Assembly: GCA_944383305.1 (NCBI GenBank) | Contig: CALWOZ010000025.1 | Coordinates: 1 to 39,265, forward strand | Length of the DNA: 39,265 nucleotides | Direction: 5' to 3' | From: an uncultured Clostridia bacterium | GTDB taxonomy: Bacteria > Bacillota > Clostridia > Lachnospirales > CAG-274 | In this document: positions 1 to 7,055 of the stretch, piece after piece | Layout: every line of letters starts with the position of its first letter | Numbering within the stretch: position 1 is the first letter of the stretch | The notes under the pieces: model-generated | Databases searched by the model: none | What the model was told of the DNA's origin: nothing | The model's input: only the letters and a program-made list of their open reading frames with translations | Translations under genes and position numbers: made by a program

Positions 1-121
1 AGTTTTAAGGTAGGCATTTCAAGGCGTTACCCTATCATTCTACCTATCGAAATATTAGTTCTCCAAGTCTTTTTTTTATTTAGACTTGTGCGTAACCTTT
101 TAAGTTACGAACGTGTCGCAC
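1..121 (-). mobile_element. 5' end of a probable group II intron (cut by window edge)
   Basis: Read on the minus strand, the helicase gene runs up to position 122. From 121 it changes to GTGCGAC, the conserved 5' start of bacterial group II introns. The next 120 bases are rich in paired segments as expected for intron domain I: GTAAC/GTTAC around 90-107, CAAGTCT/AGACTTG at 63-69/82-88, and GGTAG/CTACC at 9-13/40-44. The 5' exon ends in AAAA, so joining to a 3' exon that starts with C would restore the Thr codon of the helicase GKT motif. The intron reverse transcriptase and domains V-VI would lie outside the window. The identification rests on the 5' consensus, the folding and the exon logic; no RT is visible. 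Confidence 0.72.
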
Positions 122-3100
122 TTTTACCTGCTCCAACTTCGTGGGCTATAAGTGTATTTGAGTTAGAATAAATTACTCTTGCTATTACATTTTTTTGATA
201 ATCTCTAAGCTCTATTTCTGACGACATGTTAGGTAGTTCTAGGTTGCTACCGTCATAAGTTCTAGTTACATAGTTGTTAAATTTTTCGTTGTATATGTTA
301 GTAAGATAATCAACTCTGTTACTATCTCTAAACACCCAGTTTGTAAATTCATTTTTTAACTGCTCTTGCTTTGCTTTTGCAAGCACTGTTTCTTCGTGAT
401 TTATAACATAAACTTTTTTCATCTTGTTAGTTTTCTCATCAAAAACTTCTTTTTTATCGTTTACTTTAACAGGGCGAAGATTTAGCGTATCTTCTATTAT
501 TTCAAGTGCATTTTTCCTTTTTGTACCATATGTTTCAATGCATTTTAAGTTTGTACCACTTTTCTTATTTTCAAGAAAATATTCATTTGCTAACTCATAG
601 TAATTAAGCTTTATATAACTTTTTTGAAAATTTGTAAGCTCCAAAGTTTCATTAATAAAATCTTTATAAATTTCTTTTGGTATCCAAGTTGAACCTAGTG
701 TAAAGCCTATATCTTCTGGCTTTAAAGGTGTCGGTTGCACCTTTTCAAGAGCTTGTACATTTTTTTCAAATTCTGGCAAATGCGTTGCAATATCTTTAGC
801 TAGTAGCAATTTGTCTTTAACATATCCTGTTAAATATTCATCTGCCGTTACATATCCTTCATACTTATTTTCTTCATCATAAAAAGCAGGTTGCCTAAAT
901 ATTTTGTCCCCTAGCTCTTCTATAATTTCATCTTCTTCCTTATGATAAAGTTGCTTCATATAAGAAATATCAACTCGCCCTATATCATTAAGGCAAACTT
1001 TAAGTGCATCGTCTGCATTTTCAATAATTACATTTTGTTTTATTCTTATTGTTGGTTTGTAAAATATATCCGTTTTTTCAAAGTCTTTTGTATTTTTTAT
1101 TTCCTTTTCAATAGATAACAACAAGGGTTGCCCTATATCTTTTGCAAATATTTTTGTATTTTCCTTGCTATTTACATAGCCATATTTTTTAATAAAATCA
1201 TCATAAACTGTGTTTAATTTTTCAATTTTTTCTTTTAGTGCTTTGTCATACTGTTCAATAGTGTAATTTTGTACTACCTGTTCGGAAGTTTGAAAATCAA
1301 TAATATCTCTCAAAGCCGTATTTACATTTATTAAGCCCTTTAATCTTTCACTGTTTTTAGTATCAAAATCTTGTTTAATAAGTTCATTATCTTCTTTAAA
1401 ATATATTTCATCGTCAATTATTCCATATGAAAAGTTTCTAATACTATTATCTTCTATACTTAAAGTCTGTGTATTTTCTTCTATTTCATATTCAATAGGT
1501 TCATAATCAAACTCAATATATTTCATAGCATAATTAAGTATTGAATACAAATCAACATCTTCATAAGGTTTGCAAGCCGTGGCTTTTTCATCTCCATACA
1601 TACCTGCATCAAAAACCATTTTTCCAAGCATCATATGAGAATTTTCAATGAAATACTTATTCATTGGTATTCCGTTTTCATCTTCGCCTATTTCAAGCCA
1701 ACTTGCGTTGTTTTCTATTTCTAAAAGTGGCTCTTTTCTCTTTTTAAAAAAGATTATATCAGATGTAACTTCCGTTCCTGCTATCTGTTTAAAAGCCGTA
1801 TTTGGTAGCCTTATTGCCCCTAAAAGTTCCGCCCTTTCGTTTATATATTTTCTTACACTTATATCCTTTTTATCAAGAGTTCCTTTTGTTGTAATAACTG
1901 CAACAACGCCTTCTGCCCTAACCTTATCAAGCATTTTCGCTATAAAATAATCGTGTATTTTAAAGTTATATTTGTTATAGTCCTTATCATCTATTTGAAG
2001 ATTATTAAAAGGTATGTTTGATATAGCTAAATCAAAAAAGTTATTTTTAAAATTTGTTTCTTCAAAGCCGTTTATTTCAATGTTCGCATTTGGATACAAC
2101 TGCCTTGCAATTCTTCCTGATAGGCTATCAATTTCAATTCCATAAAGGCTTGAATTTTTCATTTCTTTAGGAAGAACAGAAAAGAAGTTTCCTGTCCCCA
2201 TACTTGGGTCTAGTATTCGCCCTTGTTTAAAACCATTAGCCATTAAACAGTTATAAATTTCTTTAATGATTTTTTGTTCTGTATAAAAAGCCGTTGTTGT
2301 AGATTTTTGTGCCGACTTAAACTCATCTTCTGTTAGAAGTTCTTTAAATGTTTTGTATTGTTCTTCAAAACCTATCTTGTTTGGAGTTAGTGCGTTTGCA
2401 AGCCCACCAAAACCATTATATCCTGCAAGTATTTTTTGTTCTTCTGGTGTTGCTAGTCTGTTTTCGGTTTCTAATTGTTTCAAAAGCTTTATTATTTCAA
2501 TATTCGTGTTGCACTTTGTTTTTATCCCACCATCATATAGGTTATGTTCTTCTTCATAAATGTAGTTATTATTTTTCTTATCATCAAGGCTAAAATCTTC
2601 TGTTATTTCATTGTCATAATACTGATTTTCAAAGATTTCTTCATTAAATATATCTTGTGCCATTTGGTCAATTTCATCAGGTATGTTGTAGTCGCCTATT
2701 TCGTCTACTTCTTCTAGTTCATTTTCAAAATCTTCTACATATTCTTCTTGTTTTTCTAAATTTGCTATACCTTCATTTTTAGGTACAAAAAAAGAGCCTT
2801 GTTCTTCTGGCTCTTTAATATTTTCATTTTCTAATTCTTTTAATAAATCGTATATATATTCGATAGGCTCTGCCCTAAAAATTGGATAAGAAACATTTTG
2901 TGGCAATAACTCAACTTCATTTAAAAAATCATTTACTCTATAAATAGTAAAATCTCTATCCCCTAAATTTATTTCTGTACCTATTTTTGATTTTACATAT
3001 TCAATTTTTTCATCTATACTACTTTCTCTATTATCTCCTTGATTGTCATTTCTTCTGCTATTTGGTGTATCTGTGTTAGGTGATTGGCTCTCTCTAGTGT

Positions 3101-4196
3101 CTTGTCCGATGGTGGCATTGGTTGTTTCTCTAAAAGTTGTTGTATTGTTTTTTCCTTGAAGTTCTCTGCCATTTCCTGTATCTCTAGCATTTTCTTGTTC
3201 AGTTCTCCTATCATTACTAATGTTGTTATCTCGTGGCGTTTGTTCTCCGTTAGATATTCCTTCCACATCACCCCATAAGGCACTTGGCTCGGCTCTATCT
3301 CCACTTCCTCCTCCAGTGCCAACATCGGATACCATAGTCCTGTCGCCTCGTCCTCGAAGTACTCTATCTCCCAACCTGTTGGTGTTGTTTCTATCATCGT
3401 TCTCCCTTCTTTCAAGGCTTTCTTCATTGCTTCTTTCAGTTTCTCGTCCATTTGTTAATTCTCCTTTGCGTTCTTTTTCTTTTTCAATTATTTTTACTTG
3501 TATAAAAATCTCTCTTAAAATTTCTCTTGAAATATCTGTTGCTAAGCTTCCCATTTTAGAAAATACTTTCATATCTTTTATACTATCAAAATTTAAGTTA
3601 TTGGGAAAAATATATTCTAAGTTGCATTTTTTAAATAATATATATTCAAGGCAACTTAAAGATATACTGGCTACATCTGATTTTTGCCTGTCATCAATTT
3701 CAAGATTACCTATGTACTCATCTTCTTTTTGAGCTATCTTTTCTACTAATGTATAGTATAAATATTCTCTTATATTTTCATAATTTGTACCATTTTTCTT
3801 ATTAAGATTTTTTACAATTTGAGAGGTATCTTCTTCCTTAATCTCCCATTTGTAATCTAATACCTTTTTATAGCTTGCATAATTCCCATTTGTATTTTTT
3901 AGTTCAAATAAATATTTAAAAGTTGGCTTTGGATTTTCAATTTCTAAAACTGCTAACCCTTTTGTTCCCCTGTTTACATATCTGCCAACTTGGTTATTCC
4001 ATACATCTATTGTCGCTAAAAACTCTGCATCTGAGTTTTGGTTATGGATAAGTACAATGTTATCAAATGGATATTTATTAAATTTTATTGCAGTGTCAAG
4101 CAAACTTTTTAAATCTTCTTCCGTGTTTATGTTATCAAGTGCTTGCCTGTATTGATTTTTTAATTCTTCAATTTTTTGCTTATTTATAGTAATCAC
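122..4196 (-). CDS. ICE-type ArdC/N6-DNA methylase/helicase, 5' exon, interrupted by intron
   Basis: This is the large 'methylase-helicase' protein typical of Firmicute integrative conjugative elements. Residues about 1-110 resemble the ArdC/LtrC N-terminal domain. Residues about 245-400 are a Gly/Arg/Asn/Asp/Glu-rich linker. An N6-adenine methyltransferase core follows, with motif I DPSMGTGNFF near residue 660 and the catalytic-type motif as SNIPF near 720. The last visible segment is the start of a superfamily 2 helicase (LRDYQKNVIARV, then AHEVGAGK near 1350). Relatives continue for many hundreds of residues, so this is only the 5' exon; reading on into the intron meets a stop at 105-107. 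The start is uncertain: GTG at 4196 lies inside the AAAGGAG ribosome site, while ATT (4193) or ATA (4187, 8 nt after it) are better placed but unusual codons. It probably acts on transferring element DNA; this is inferred from family context. Lies downstream of parA-parB. Confidence 0.8.
3014..3451 (-). CDS. TnpV-like protein nested in another frame of the methylase-helicase gene
   Basis: A 145-codon frame on the same strand as the large gene but in a different phase, starting with ATG. A textbook ribosome site, AAAGGAG, lies 9 nt before the ATG. The product is charged, helical and protein-like. Its pattern matches what I recall of the TnpV family of transposon/ICE accessory proteins: WYPMLALEEE, then a YLTENKRHEITTL segment, GELNKKMLEI, a proline break (PMPP), and a C-terminal IAEEMTIKEIIEKV helix. 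The host frame over the same bases encodes the low-complexity linker, where sequence constraint should be weak. GC over 3061-3420 is about 44% by hand count, against 22-27% in two sampled rows nearby (1501-1560, 2581-2640), as expected of a doubly used stretch. TnpV was named in Tn4451-type elements and its biochemical role is not established. The alternative is a chance open frame, but the ribosome site and family pattern argue against it. Confidence 0.68.
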   Translation of the reverse strand: MDEKLKEAMKKALKEGRTMIETTPTGWEIEYFEDEATGLWYPMLALEEEVEIEPSQVPYGVMWKEYLTENKRHEITTLVMIGELNKKMLEIQEMAENFKEKTIQQLLEKQPMPPSDKTLERANHLTQIHQIAEEMTIKEIIEKVV

Positions 4197-4208
4197 TCCT
4201 TTATTTTA

Positions 4209-4233
4209 ACTTGTTCCCCATTGGGGAACAAGT
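4209..4233. promoter_or_regulatory. 25-bp palindrome between parB and the methylase-helicase gene
   Basis: Perfect inverted repeat with 11-bp arms (ACTTGTTCCCC / GGGGAACAAGT; the pairing can extend one more base) and almost no loop. It ends 6 nt before the AAAGGAG ribosome site of the methylase-helicase gene. No T-run follows on the minus strand, so it does not look like an ordinary terminator. The outer halves TGTTCC...GGAACA resemble the halves of chromosomal parS sites, but the total is longer than the 16-bp parS consensus. It may be an operator or a binding site for the neighbouring ParB; that is inference. Confidence 0.6.
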
Positions 4234-4287
4234 TGTGTATATAGCCATTTTCAAGGCATATAGAGTTTTTATGTTACATTTGTGCCA

Positions 4288-5229
4288 CTAGTTTTGGCTA
4301 GTAAAATACATTTCTAAAGCTTTTTCTATAACATCTTCTATTTCTTGTTGTTTGCAATTTTTATCAAAATATTTGCTTGTTATATCGTTGCTTATTTTAA
4401 TGTATTTAGCCCTTGTCCTTTTAGGCTTTTCTTCATTATTTTTTAAATAATATTCAACATTGTCAACATTTAATTTATAGTCTTTATATAGATTTTTAAG
4501 TTTTTCTGCTTTTTCAATATTTATTGAAACACCTTCATTTAACAATGAATTTATTCTACTTTGTATTTTTTCATCTTCTATAAATGAAATGTTATATCCA
4601 ACTCTTATAGGCAATGTTTCATCATCAACTTTGTACAATAAATCTTCGTTAAGTTTAGCTAATCTCATATATCTAGCAACGGTATTTTTTGATAGTGAAT
4701 ATTCATTTCCAACTTTTTCTATATTATACTCACTTTTTTCTGTACCATTTTTCATAAGATTTCCTATCTCTTGTAACAAGTCATTTCTCTTGCCTTGACA
4801 CTTTAAAGCTTTATAATGTTGTTCTAATGTATATGCCCTTTCAGAATGGGACAAATCACTAAATGAACGTTGCATAAAGTTTGTTTCTGTAACAATAAGA
4901 GTTGCTTCTTCCATTGTTAAATCTTCTTTAATTACACAAGGTATTTCATCTAAACCTAATTTTTTACAAGCTTCCACACGATTATGCCCACTTAATATAA
5001 TAAAATCATTTTCATTTTTCCATACAACTATCGGAACGATAACCCCATATTGCTCAATACTTTCTATCATATCTTCAAGCCTTTTACCTGTATAAAGCTT
5101 AAATTTATGATTTGGAAAAGGTTTAAGTAATTCTATTTCAATTTTTTCTGGCTCTCCATATGCTTTAACTTGCCCTGTTGCAAAATTTAACATTGTGTTA
5201 AAGTCATCTAATTCTATTTTGTTATTCAA
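4288..5229 (-). CDS. ParB-family protein of the mobile element
   Basis: ParB/Spo0J-type partition or nucleoid-occlusion-like protein of 313 aa. An N-terminal ParB/sulfiredoxin-fold domain (residues about 28-125) has SGHNRVEACKKLG, equivalent to the GERR-type CTP-binding loop, and TNFMQR, equivalent to ENLQR. A central helix-turn-helix (about 160-195) contains YSLSKNTVARYMRLAKL. The C-terminal 80 residues are basic and charged. The start is TTG, preceded by AGGAG 10 nt upstream, and overlaps the last 8 bases of parA, so the two are probably translationally coupled. The GHNR form (not GERR) is common in plasmid and ICE ParBs. Likely role: maintenance of the circular element, or local regulation through the palindrome just downstream. 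Confidence 0.85.
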   Translation of the reverse strand: MNNKIELDDFNTMLNFATGQVKAYGEPEKIEIELLKPFPNHKFKLYTGKRLEDMIESIEQYGVIVPIVVWKNENDFIILSGHNRVEACKKLGLDEIPCVIKEDLTMEEATLIVTETNFMQRSFSDLSHSERAYTLEQHYKALKCQGKRNDLLQEIGNLMKNGTEKSEYNIEKVGNEYSLSKNTVARYMRLAKLNEDLLYKVDDETLPIRVGYNISFIEDEKIQSRINSLLNEGVSINIEKAEKLKNLYKDYKLNVDNVEYYLKNNEEKPKRTRAKYIKISNDITSKYFDKNCKQQEIEDVIEKALEMYFTSQN

Positions 5230-6001
5230 TTTTCATCATCTCCTGTACTAATTGCTCGTATGCTTTTGATACTGCATTTTCTGGCATATATTCGCATATA
5301 GTTTGTTTATATATATTTGCCTCTGATACTTTCGTACTTCTCGGTATAACTATATCAAAAATATTTATATGTTGTTTAAAGCTTTCATTTAATATCTTTT
5401 TAACTTCTTTAGATGCAATAGTATTTTTAGTATCCATTGTTATCAAAATTCCGTCTATACTTAATTTTCTATTTATATTTTTTATAGTTAAATAGTGTTT
5501 TACAAGTTCTGATAAACCTTTTGCTGATAATATTTCTGCTTGTGTCGGTATAATAAGACTATCTGACGCCATCATAACATTTATCATAGGTGTACCTATT
5601 TGTGGCATACAGTCAATAATTATGTAATCATAATCAATCTTAATTTCGTCTATCAAACTTTGTAAAATATACTCTCTAAAGTTTATGTTACATAAGTTTC
5701 TCTCAAGCGTGAAAAGATTTGAGTTTGCAGGTATTAAATCAATACCTTTATTTTTTATTATGTAATCTTCTTTTGGTGGCAAGCTATCTTTTGTTATAAC
5801 TTTATTTATAAGTGTTGAAATAGTTGTTTCTATTTCGTTAGGATTTTTATCTCCCATTATCATTGTAGAATTAGCTTGTCCATCAAAATCTATTAATAGG
5901 ACTTTCTTATCTTCTTTACCTAATAAATATGCTAAATTGGTTGAAGTAGTAGTTTTGCCAACCCCTCCTTTCTCATTAACTATCGCTATTACTTTACTCA
6001 T
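5222..6001 (-). CDS. ParA-family partition ATPase of the mobile element
   Basis: Walker-type partition ATPase, 259 aa, the usual length for the Soj/ParA branch without an N-terminal HTH. The deviant Walker A motif KGGVGKTT is at residues 11-18. LLIDFDGQANST (switch I region) is near 36-47, and YIIIDCMPQIG (Walker B) is near 125-135. The start is ATG with AAAGGAG 9 nt upstream. It overlaps parB by 8 nt and heads the element's minus-strand run parA-parB-methylase/helicase. Only about 75 bp separate it from the 3' end of the neighbouring deacetylase gene, and that space is filled by a terminator hairpin. I see no convincing promoter there. Confidence 0.9.
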   Translation of the reverse strand: MSKVIAIVNEKGGVGKTTTSTNLAYLLGKEDKKVLLIDFDGQANSTMIMGDKNPNEIETTISTLINKVITKDSLPPKEDYIIKNKGIDLIPANSNLFTLERNLCNINFREYILQSLIDEIKIDYDYIIIDCMPQIGTPMINVMMASDSLIIPTQAEILSAKGLSELVKHYLTIKNINRKLSIDGILITMDTKNTIASKEVKKILNESFKQHINIFDIVIPRSTKVSEANIYKQTICEYMPENAVSKAYEQLVQEMMKIE

Positions 6002-6038
6002 AAAACTCTGCTCCTTTGTAATAATTTTAAAAAATAAA

Positions 6039-6093
6039 AATAAGACTTAATTAAAATCCTTTATTTTTAAGGTATTTTTAATTAAGTCTTATT
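6039..6093. terminator. terminator of the deacetylase gene, at the element/chromosome junction
   Basis: Perfect 18-bp arms (6039-6056 and 6076-6093) around a 19-nt loop. On the minus strand the hairpin is followed by TTTTTATTTTTT, giving an intrinsic terminator for the deacetylase gene, whose last three codons lie in the stem. Confidence 0.8.
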
Positions 6094-6884
6094 ATATCAG
6101 CAACTTCCATATAATAGTTATCTTTATGAATTAATTCTCCTACAGATACAACCTCATATCCCTTTTCTTTTAGTCCTTTTAATATAGTATCTAAAGAATC
6201 TGGTGTATACTCTGCGTCATTATGAAAAAGCATTATAGAACCATTTCCTAAATGTTTATGATTTAACACTTGATTTACTTCATGCTCGACTCCATATTCT
6301 TTCCAGTCTAAACTATCAATATCCCATTGAATTGTATGATATCCAACTTCTTTAGCTGCTTGCAATACAGTGTCATTATATTCTCCAAAAGGAGGTCTAT
6401 ATAAGTCCATATCATATCCCAATAAATCTTTTATTTTATTATGTACTTCCATTATTTCTTTTTTATTTTGTTCTAAACTTATTTGACTTCCATGAGGGTG
6501 TGTATTACTATGATTACCTATTTCGTGTCCTTCTTCATAAATCTTTTTAACTTCTTCTGGATATTTATCAATCCAATAACCACATAAAAAGAAAGTAGCT
6601 TTAACGTTATTATTTTTAAGTATAGTTAATAATTCATCTGTATCATCTGCTCCCCAAGCAGCATCAAAACTTATTGCAACTTTCTTTTCATCTGTATCAA
6701 CACAATATATAGGTAAATTCTTTTTAGCTGGCTGAGGCTGTGCTGAAACTGCCACACTATCAATATTGTTTTGAACAATAGGTCTAAACACATAAACTAA
6801 AGAAAAACAAATACCTATTAATAATATAAAATATTTTATATTATTAAATTTTAATACTTTTAATATTTTTTTTATATTTTCCAT
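6078..6884 (-). CDS. membrane-anchored polysaccharide deacetylase (PdaB-like, sporulation type)
   Basis: NodB-homology (carbohydrate esterase 4) protein of 268 aa. Residues 17-35 form a hydrophobic signal-anchor. The catalytic domain covers about 68-255. Motif 1 is SFDAAWGADDT (72-82), the AAW variant seen in clostridial spore-associated PdaB-like deacetylases instead of TFDDG. Motif 2 is HSNTHPH (125-131, metal ligands), motif 3 RPPFGEYN (163-170), motif 4 near DIDSLDWK (188-195), motif 5 LFHNDA (219-224). Predicted to remove acetyl groups from peptidoglycan or cortex sugars outside the membrane. The start is ATG with AAAGGAGA upstream. It is transcribed alone; its terminator includes its own stop codon. 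A 13/15 match to the CodY box lies about 90 bp upstream. Confidence 0.85.
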   Translation of the reverse strand: MENIKKILKVLKFNNIKYFILLIGICFSLVYVFRPIVQNNIDSVAVSAQPQPAKKNLPIYCVDTDEKKVAISFDAAWGADDTDELLTILKNNNVKATFFLCGYWIDKYPEEVKKIYEEGHEIGNHSNTHPHGSQISLEQNKKEIMEVHNKIKDLLGYDMDLYRPPFGEYNDTVLQAAKEVGYHTIQWDIDSLDWKEYGVEHEVNQVLNHKHLGNGSIMLFHNDAEYTPDSLDTILKGLKEKGYEVVSVGELIHKDNYYMEVADIIRLN

Positions 6885-6970
6885 AATAAATCTCCTTTAT
6901 ATATAATTTATATATAAAAACTTATTATGTTATATAATATTTTATTCTATTTTTAAATATTTTTTATTAT

Positions 6971-6985
6971 AATTTTTAGAAAAAT
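6971..6985. promoter_or_regulatory. possible CodY box upstream of the deacetylase
   Basis: AATTTTTAGAAAAAT matches the CodY consensus AATTTTCWGAAAATT at 13 of 15 positions. It lies between the deacetylase start and the pspC terminator. In such AT-rich DNA a two-mismatch hit is weak evidence, but codY is encoded 2 kb away. Confidence 0.3.
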
Positions 6986-6987
6986 AT

Positions 6988-7042
6988 AATAGCACTACAA
7001 AAATTATATATATTAAATATTTATAAAATTTATAGTGCTATT
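6988..7042 (-). terminator. probable terminator of the comM-to-pspC operon
   Basis: Inverted repeat AATAGCACTA (6988-6997) / TAGTGCTATT (7033-7042), with further AT pairing inside. It lies just after the stop of the last pspC gene. On the minus strand it is followed by an AT-rich tract with a short T-run (TATATTTTTC). Confidence 0.55.
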
Positions 7043-7055
7043 TTTATACTATTAC

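What the first reader, a model, noticed from the sequence alone, without database searches (positions are those of the whole stretch)
3014..3451. Gene nested out of frame inside the ICE methylase-helicase gene, with its own ribosome site
A 145-codon same-strand frame has an ATG 9 nt after AAAGGAG and a product that reads like a real TnpV-family protein. The host frame here is only a low-complexity linker. GC rises to about 44% (hand count, 3061-3420) against 22-27% in nearby rows, as expected if both frames are used. I know of no description of TnpV as an overlapping gene in this ICE gene family. If it is conserved, the odd Arg/Gly/Asp-rich linkers of these large proteins might exist because they carry a second gene.
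Basis: partly seen in the sequence, partly recalled or inferred. Interest (0 to 1): 0.82.

Follow-up and report, generated by a model that had tools for sequence, protein, structure and literature searches.

The report
Hidden gene inside mobile-element methylase gene
A complete second gene, of the known TnpV family, is written in another reading frame inside the large DNA-methylase/helicase genes of bacterial mobile elements, is kept by selection in many bacteria of one phylum, and tends to be annotated only at the expense of the gene around it, or not at all.

Summary
The 145-codon frame at 3014-3451(-) is a TnpV protein (Pfam PF14198, 53.2 bits, cut-off 27) nested out of frame in a 1363-aa methylase gene. 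Of 81 sequence-distinct relatives of the host gene from the same order, 71 carry a TnpV hit nested just after the N-terminal domain, all 71 in the same frame; two more carry a divergent one by eye. In a phylum-wide sample 25 of 25 hosts have it, as do twelve hosts in public records. In the overlap TnpV is under purifying selection (omega 0.18, 0.15-0.22), while the host's amino acids drift (1.06, 0.90-1.22). Yet the host frame has no stop in 71 of 71, against a mean of 7.4 in 66 standalone TnpV genes. So both frames appear to be used, and the Arg/Gly/Asp-rich linker is largely the frame shadow of TnpV. Of 59 Listeria plasmid rows listed, 57 name the host only. I found no description in the papers searched. 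TnpV's function is unknown; its persistence beside the host gene where not nested suggests partnership. Expression is untested.

The parts
3014..3451 (-). nested tnpV gene, 145 aa
   Evidence: ORF; Pfam TnpV 53.2 bits over cut-off 27; omega about 0.19 in its clade (group 0)
3461..3467 (-). Shine-Dalgarno-like AAAGGAG, 9 nt before the tnpV ATG
   Evidence: sequence; the same motif at 9 nt in the nested relatives L002, L003, L006, L008, L013, L018
105..4196 (-). host gene: ArdC-like N-terminal domain, linker, adenine-methylase part; truncated near the contig edge before most of the helicase
   Evidence: ORF; alignment to intact copy on contig C2
3474..4178 (-). conserved N-terminal domain of the host (profile A1, weak ArdC-N resemblance)
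   Evidence: G000:C25:3474-4178, E 2.0e-65; ArdcN 17.4 bits, under its cut-off of 22.6, in 1 of 6 hosts scanned, L008
1974..2225 (-). methyltransferase motif region of the host
   Evidence: Pfam Methyltransf_31/25, E about 1e-4, under cut-off
4288..5229 (-). ParB-like gene upstream of the host, same strand
   Evidence: Pfam ParB_N 45.2 bits
5222..6001 (-). ParA-like gene upstream of the host, same strand
   Evidence: Pfam AAA_31 167.6 bits; homology to the C2 copy ends near 6101

Best explanation
A conserved dual-coding locus of Bacillota mobile elements. One stretch of DNA encodes (i) a large 'polyvalent' protein (ArdC-like N-terminal domain, linker, adenine methylase, SNF2 helicase) and (ii) in the +1 frame of the linker a complete TnpV protein. 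SHOWN: both frames stay open across distant relatives, always in the same place and frame; TnpV is under purifying selection; the host frame's amino acids in the overlap are nearly neutral but stops are excluded. INFERRED: TnpV is translated by internal initiation at its own Shine-Dalgarno site on the host mRNA, while ribosomes from the host start read the same bases as a flexible linker. INFERRED, weaker: TnpV is a small accessory protein that works with the host protein in element transfer or establishment, and nesting ties its expression and inheritance to it.
For: Pfam TnpV. 71 of 81 hosts nested, 71 of 71 in frame +1, plus two divergent ones by eye; 25 of 25 in the phylum sample, 4 of them already counted; twelve hosts in public records. 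Omegas: TnpV 0.18 (0.15-0.22), host in overlap 1.06 (0.90-1.22), 13 groups; N-domain control: host 0.195, unused +1 frame 0.63. Host-frame stops 0 in 71 of 71, against mean 7.4 in 66 standalone genes of which one, a decayed nested copy, is open. Third-base T before AA/AG/GA codons 0 of 2864 in nested, 489 of 2461 in 65 standalone genes, the decayed copy left out. SD+ATG near the start 47 of 71, against 59 of 1640 control windows and 0.18 by host shuffle. Host and TnpV distances correlate, r = 0.86, 0 of 2000 permutations. tnpV just upstream of the host gene in four of six intact hosts without nesting.
Against: No expression data. SD+ATG by the strict rule is missing near the start in 24 of 71, so initiation may differ or starts may be mis-set. 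Eight of 81 hosts lack a nested frame: two broken or cut, six intact, so nesting is not essential, and it is less common in distant hosts (2 of 9 under score 150 by profile). TnpV copies also live alone (64 of 119 stretches), so a tie to this host is not obligatory. The pairs behind the omegas are not independent within groups, and some hosts are nearly alike. Places were picked by hand.
Confidence: 0.85

Rival explanations
1. Only the host protein is real; the TnpV frame is an accident of linker composition.
For: Annotation of many copies lists the host only (57 of 59 Listeria rows listed).
Against: Pfam TnpV over cut-off; omega 0.18 in the TnpV frame; the same family occurs as standalone genes; host-synonymous shuffles leave TnpV open in a mean 5.7% of trials.
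Confidence: 0.02
2. TnpV is real but the host frame is not read through it: the locus is two or three separate genes and the linker is never translated.
For: Host amino acids in the overlap are near neutral (omega 1.06). Some records list tnpV and no continuous host, although that gene table omits pseudogenes and the Monoglobus host frame is broken inside its N-domain.
Against: Host frame has 0 stops in 71 of 71, against mean 7.4 in standalone TnpV; codon context 0 of 2864. In L. innocua, A. prevotii, Virgibacillus and R. albus records one continuous protein is annotated.
Confidence: 0.04
3. TnpV is made as a fusion by a +1 ribosomal frameshift from the host N-domain at the AAAGGAG region, not by fresh initiation.
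For: SD-like purine runs can promote shifting (recalled); the tnpV frame is host +1 in 71 of 71 nested cases.
Against: In six of seven intact nested copies of the window clade an in-frame stop lies two codons before the ATG (one codon between; L003 is the exception), leaving almost no room; an ATG with SD is present in 47 of 71; standalone TnpV has its own start.
Confidence: 0.05
4. TnpV is an excisionase or recombination directionality factor of the element, and its place in the host gene has no functional meaning.
For: TnpV of Tn4451 was postulated to act in excision by likeness to lambda Xis (PMC3158075, passage); S. suis authors call it a transposase gene reported to be involved in element integration (PMC9815147, passage). 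In this genome two standalone TnpV genes lie about 2 kb from a large serine recombinase gene.
Against: [quoted passage not shown] Co-inheritance with the host and upstream adjacency where not nested are not predicted.
Confidence: 0.25

Closest known systems
TnpV family (Pfam PF14198; Tn4451/Tn6104-type TnpV)
   Same: Same protein family by profile; standalone members in elements with serine recombinases, as in mobilisable transposons (PMC3158075 passages).
   Different: Here the gene is wholly inside another gene, whose frame is kept free of stops across it.
Polyvalent proteins with ArdC-N and the DNA methylase-helicase dyad (Iyer et al. 2017, PMC5512222)
   Same: Host architecture: ArdC-like N-terminus (weak here), adenine methylase, SNF2 ATPase, in conjugative elements (passages).
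   Different: The main text held of that paper has 0 occurrences of 'TnpV' and of 'overlap'; the nested gene is not treated in what I saw.
snf2 gene of ICESa2603/Tn5252-family ICEs
   Same: An S. agalactiae record named for snf2 carries a TnpV-like frame nested at the same place (Pfam 16.2 bits, under cut-off). That it belongs to this ICE family is inferred from its name and PMC12942858.
   Different: The passages seen (PMC12942858, PMC7168690) treat snf2 as one gene and as an insertion target.
Overlapping genes of bacteria (such as the E. coli O157:H7 cases listed)
   Same: Long overlap of two coding frames missed by annotation.
   Different: Several of those listed are antisense or called orphan genes in title or abstract; this is same-strand, of a known family, and spread across a phylum.

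Membership tests
TnpV (PF14198) | profile score over the curated cut-off | tested here: met
   53.2 bits against 27; of three nested frames from public records, L. innocua 28.7 and R. albus 31.5 pass, S. agalactiae 16.2 does not
TnpV (PF14198) | role in excision (postulated) | not testable with these tools
   postulate seen in PMC3158075 passage; no assay possible
Nested overlapping gene pair | both frames open in diverged relatives | tested here: met
   71 of 71 nested copies have 0 host-frame stops; same frame in 71 of 71
Nested overlapping gene pair | purifying selection on the nested frame | tested here: met
   omega 0.18, 0.15-0.22
Nested overlapping gene pair | purifying selection on the host's amino acids in the overlap | tested here: not met
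   omega 1.06, 0.90-1.22; only openness is kept
Nested overlapping gene pair | both products translated | not testable with these tools
   no expression data held
Polyvalent ArdC-N methylase-helicase protein | ArdC-N domain at the N-terminus | tested here: inconclusive
   ArdcN 17.4 bits, cut-off 22.6, in L008; not listed for the other five hosts scanned; 36 of 59 listed Listeria rows are named 'ArdC-like ssDNA-binding'
Polyvalent ArdC-N methylase-helicase protein | methylase and SNF2 helicase in one chain | tested here: met
   C2 sister copy: SNF2-rel_dom 56.4 and Helicase_C 37.8 over cut-off, methyltransferase models under theirs; Virgibacillus host: SNF2, Helicase_C and Eco57I all over cut-off. 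The window copy lacks most of the helicase

The most novel reading that the evidence does not exclude
The TnpV family was born by overprinting inside the linker of an ancestral polyvalent methylase-helicase gene, and the standalone TnpV genes of transposons and ICEs are escaped copies. An escape needs only loss of openness in an unused frame. The reverse, repeated entry of a free gene into the same site and frame, would each time need removal of about seven stops. On the TnpV tree, nesting ancestral with no return needs 16 escapes; free ancestral with no escape needs at least 17 separate nestings (22 with the midpoint root). The tree does not settle the root.
Probability: 0.4. Interest if true: 0.88.

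Novelty: new variant of a known kind. Interest (0 to 1): 0.82.

Why it matters
Long same-strand nested genes of a recognisable family, kept across a phylum, are to my knowledge very rare in bacteria. This one sits in a common gene of conjugative elements (host N-domain in 97 of 295 genomes of one order at E 1e-10, a looser set than the full-length hosts), is annotated either instead of its host or not at all in the records I opened, and explains a puzzling linker. It supplies many natural replicates for testing overlap theory, and it means that insertions or knock-outs in such 'snf2' genes may hit two proteins.

Tried and rejected
Rejected: accident of composition (homology, omegas, shuffles); host frame untranslated (stops); recent or local oddity. 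A single nested clade of TnpV was tested and is not supported: 14 changes on the tree, at least 9 forced by starred branches, 46.5 expected by shuffle. Direction of origin stays open.

Led nowhere: NCBIfam; PDB sequence search, 0 matches; PHROG family without function; viral contigs with the window protein, none, and with one other TnpV protein, none; plasmids with the window protein, none; phages with the window protein, one weak record, not opened. A motif-based classification failed and was replaced by a profile.

Literature: nine searches. Six papers were opened as passages only (PMC3158075, PMC3783163, PMC12942858, PMC7168690, PMC9815147, PMC5512222); all others were seen as listings. None that I saw describes a nested tnpV; subscription papers are mostly not held.

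Limits: fetched places were picked by hand from the listings (both capped), mostly the higher-scoring ones, so nested-to-standalone proportions are not unbiased. Hosts were counted as distinct if their N-domain sequences differ; some are nearly alike. Five of 86 hosts were dropped for under 700 nt downstream; of these, three show a nested TnpV hit in the part seen and two had too little sequence. Pairs over 35% different were dropped from the omegas. From, ten of 163 records were opened (the nine with at least 80% coverage, one of them through hit H32, and one with 52%), plus one Listeria record with 40%. Of 36 records, 20 have 'TnpV protein' under the match; I opened three directly and two more through, so for most I did not see whether the gene is nested. 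Of 47 phage records one was opened.
Full report
OBSERVATION. The 145-codon frame at 3014-3451 on the minus strand is as described: ATG at 3449-3451, AAAGGAG at 3461-3467. It lies in the ORF 105-4196, whose reading there is a low-complexity stretch. GC is 0.45 at 3151-3450 against 0.25-0.26 beside it. The product is a TnpV protein: PF14198, E 3.5e-14, 53.2 bits, cut-off 27. The window copy of the host is cut short near the contig edge: bases 124-6101 match contig C2 of the same genome at 93-95%, the first ~120 do not. The C2 copy is intact, 2367 aa, with SNF2 and Helicase_C domains.

OWN GENOME. Five places related to the frame: the window, C2 (98%), C57 (83%), and two on C15 at 52% and 33%. 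The first three are nested in long host frames; the C15 pair stands alone, about 2 kb from a large serine recombinase gene.

BREADTH, FROM TnpV. TnpV occurs in 121 of 295 genomes of the order. In 129 loci I found 119 distinct TnpV stretches: 53 nested in a long same-strand frame, all 53 in the same relative frame, 64 standalone, 2 partial. The places were picked by hand, so this ratio is not an estimate.

BREADTH, FROM THE HOST. A profile of the host's N-terminal domain (A1, built from 14 nested hosts) matched 97 of 295 genomes. From the loci I gathered, 86 hosts distinct in sequence have a full-length domain, 81 of them with at least 700 nt after it. Of these 81, 71 have a TnpV hit inside the host frame, all 71 in frame +1, beginning 2 to 230 nt after the domain; 69 of 72 with a domain score of 150 or more, 2 of 9 below it. 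The other ten: L177 and L179 hold, in the same place and frame, an ORF that resembles TnpV by eye and that the profile missed. L007 is a decayed copy in which both frames are broken, and L183 is cut short. L173, L194, L180, L188, L182 and L193 are intact without a nested frame, and their linkers are different. In four of these (L173, L180, L182, L193) tnpV is a separate gene just upstream of the host. In a phylum sample 15 of 398 genomes have the domain at E 1e-25; 25 of 25 hosts have TnpV nested in frame +1, four of them already counted.

PUBLIC RECORDS. Nested in frame +1 in Virgibacillus, Monoglobus, Cohnella, Subdoligranulum, Streptococcus agalactiae, Aerococcus tenax, Anaerococcus prevotii and Ruminococcus albus plasmid records and in a faecal contig deposited as phage (nine hosts), in two more Subdoligranulum plasmids and in Listeria innocua. 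Because the profile includes L177 and L179, the weak S. agalactiae, Aerococcus and Anaerococcus hits lean on them; by Pfam alone S. agalactiae scores 16.2 (under 27), while L. innocua (28.7) and R. albus (31.5) pass. The Aerococcus host frame is short (436 aa) and the Monoglobus one begins inside the domain, so these two hosts look broken. The Listeria frame is in 95 Listeria plasmid records; of the 59 listed, 57 have a host product under it, one 'hypothetical protein' and one 'TnpV protein'. The same bases are 'TnpV protein' in CP044431.1 and lie inside 'SNF2-related protein' in NZ_MZ127845.1. In Virgibacillus, Anaerococcus and R. albus only the host is listed. In Cohnella TnpV is named, an antisense 'hypothetical' is called over the host's N-domain, and no host is listed; the plasmid gene table omits pseudogenes. 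TnpV as such is often annotated: 20 of 36 rows, most of them not opened and likely standalone. In IMG/VR contigs, of ten loci six are nested and four standalone; two of the six are identical sequences.

SELECTION. In 37 close pairs of 13 groups, rates were counted by effect in both frames and bootstrapped over groups. TnpV omega is 0.18 (0.15-0.22); host omega in the overlap 1.06 (0.90-1.22). In the N-domain control the host has 0.195 and the unused +1 frame 0.63. Median identity over 71 hosts: N-domain 0.29, TnpV 0.30, host linker 0.19. So the amino acids of the linker are nearly free, but its frame is not: host-frame stops are 0 in 71 of 71, the third frame has a mean of 14.6, and 66 standalone TnpV genes have a mean of 7.4 stops in the host-equivalent frame, one being open, the decayed copy L007. 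By TnpV-synonymous shuffles the host frame stays open in a mean 7.4% of trials, with a maximum of 48% for one copy, so openness in any single copy is weak evidence; it is the 71 together that count. The same fact by codon context: a third-base T before AA, AG or GA in 0 of 2864 nested cases and 489 of 2461 standalone ones. Linker composition correlates with the same-frame shadow of standalone TnpV (0.78), less with the other shadow (0.29). Hence the Arg/Gly/Asp-rich linker is mostly what TnpV looks like one frame over.

EXPRESSION SIGNALS. By a strict rule, SD plus ATG in the TnpV frame near its start occurs in 47 of 71, against 59 of 1640 windows elsewhere in the same hosts and 0.178 under host-synonymous shuffles. 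A looser rule, choosing among starts, finds one in 53 of 53; that is not a fair test. GC of the overlap exceeds that of the N-domain in 69 of 71.

HISTORY. Host and nested TnpV distances correlate (Mantel r 0.863, 0 of 2000): they travel as one locus. On a 139-row TnpV tree nested and standalone need 14 changes. With only escapes allowed, 16; with only nestings allowed, at least 17 over all internal roots. Same site, same frame and the need to purge stops make many separate nestings unlikely, so I favour old nesting with escapes, but the root is not known, and few columns leave many forks unresolved.

FUNCTION. The host resembles polyvalent proteins (PMC5512222, passages), proposed there to enter the recipient with the DNA and protect it. 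[quoted passage not shown] The frequent company of the host gene, nested or just upstream, points to a partner or regulator of the host protein. This last step is inference.

NOVELTY. The family, the host type and bacterial overlaps are known; their combination, its breadth and the nearly free linker are, in the papers I could search, not described.

Noticed in passing
window 1-123: The contig edge does not match the otherwise near-identical C2 copy; the host helicase is lost there, by truncation, junction or misassembly.
   Followed up: partly
window 6751-7050: GC falls to 0.123, the lowest 300-base window of the first 12 kb.
   Followed up: no
L126 2244-3606: A standalone TnpV ORF of 218 aa begins with a segment that resembles two tandem ORFs just upstream by eye: a TnpV fused to a repeated N-terminal unit.
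   Followed up: no
L240 (G000:C15): Two adjacent standalone TnpV genes (52% and 33% to the window's) about 2 kb from a large serine recombinase gene, Tn4451-like in content.
   Followed up: partly
L242 7783-8346: An antisense 'hypothetical protein' (WP_248551618.1) is annotated over the host N-domain in Cohnella, probably spurious.
   Followed up: partly
S. suis IMEs (PMC9815147 passages): Cargo elements that carry a TnpV gene insert into the snf2 gene of ICEs, a gene of the kind that carries a nested TnpV here; the coincidence is unexplained.
   Followed up: no
L239 2431-9531: The intact host ends in DUF6908 and DUF4314 domains.
   Followed up: no
L125 2335-6999: This host, also with a nested TnpV, has MutS_I, DUF3991 and Toprim_2 domains between linker and methylase, so host architectures vary behind the same nested gene.
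   Followed up: no
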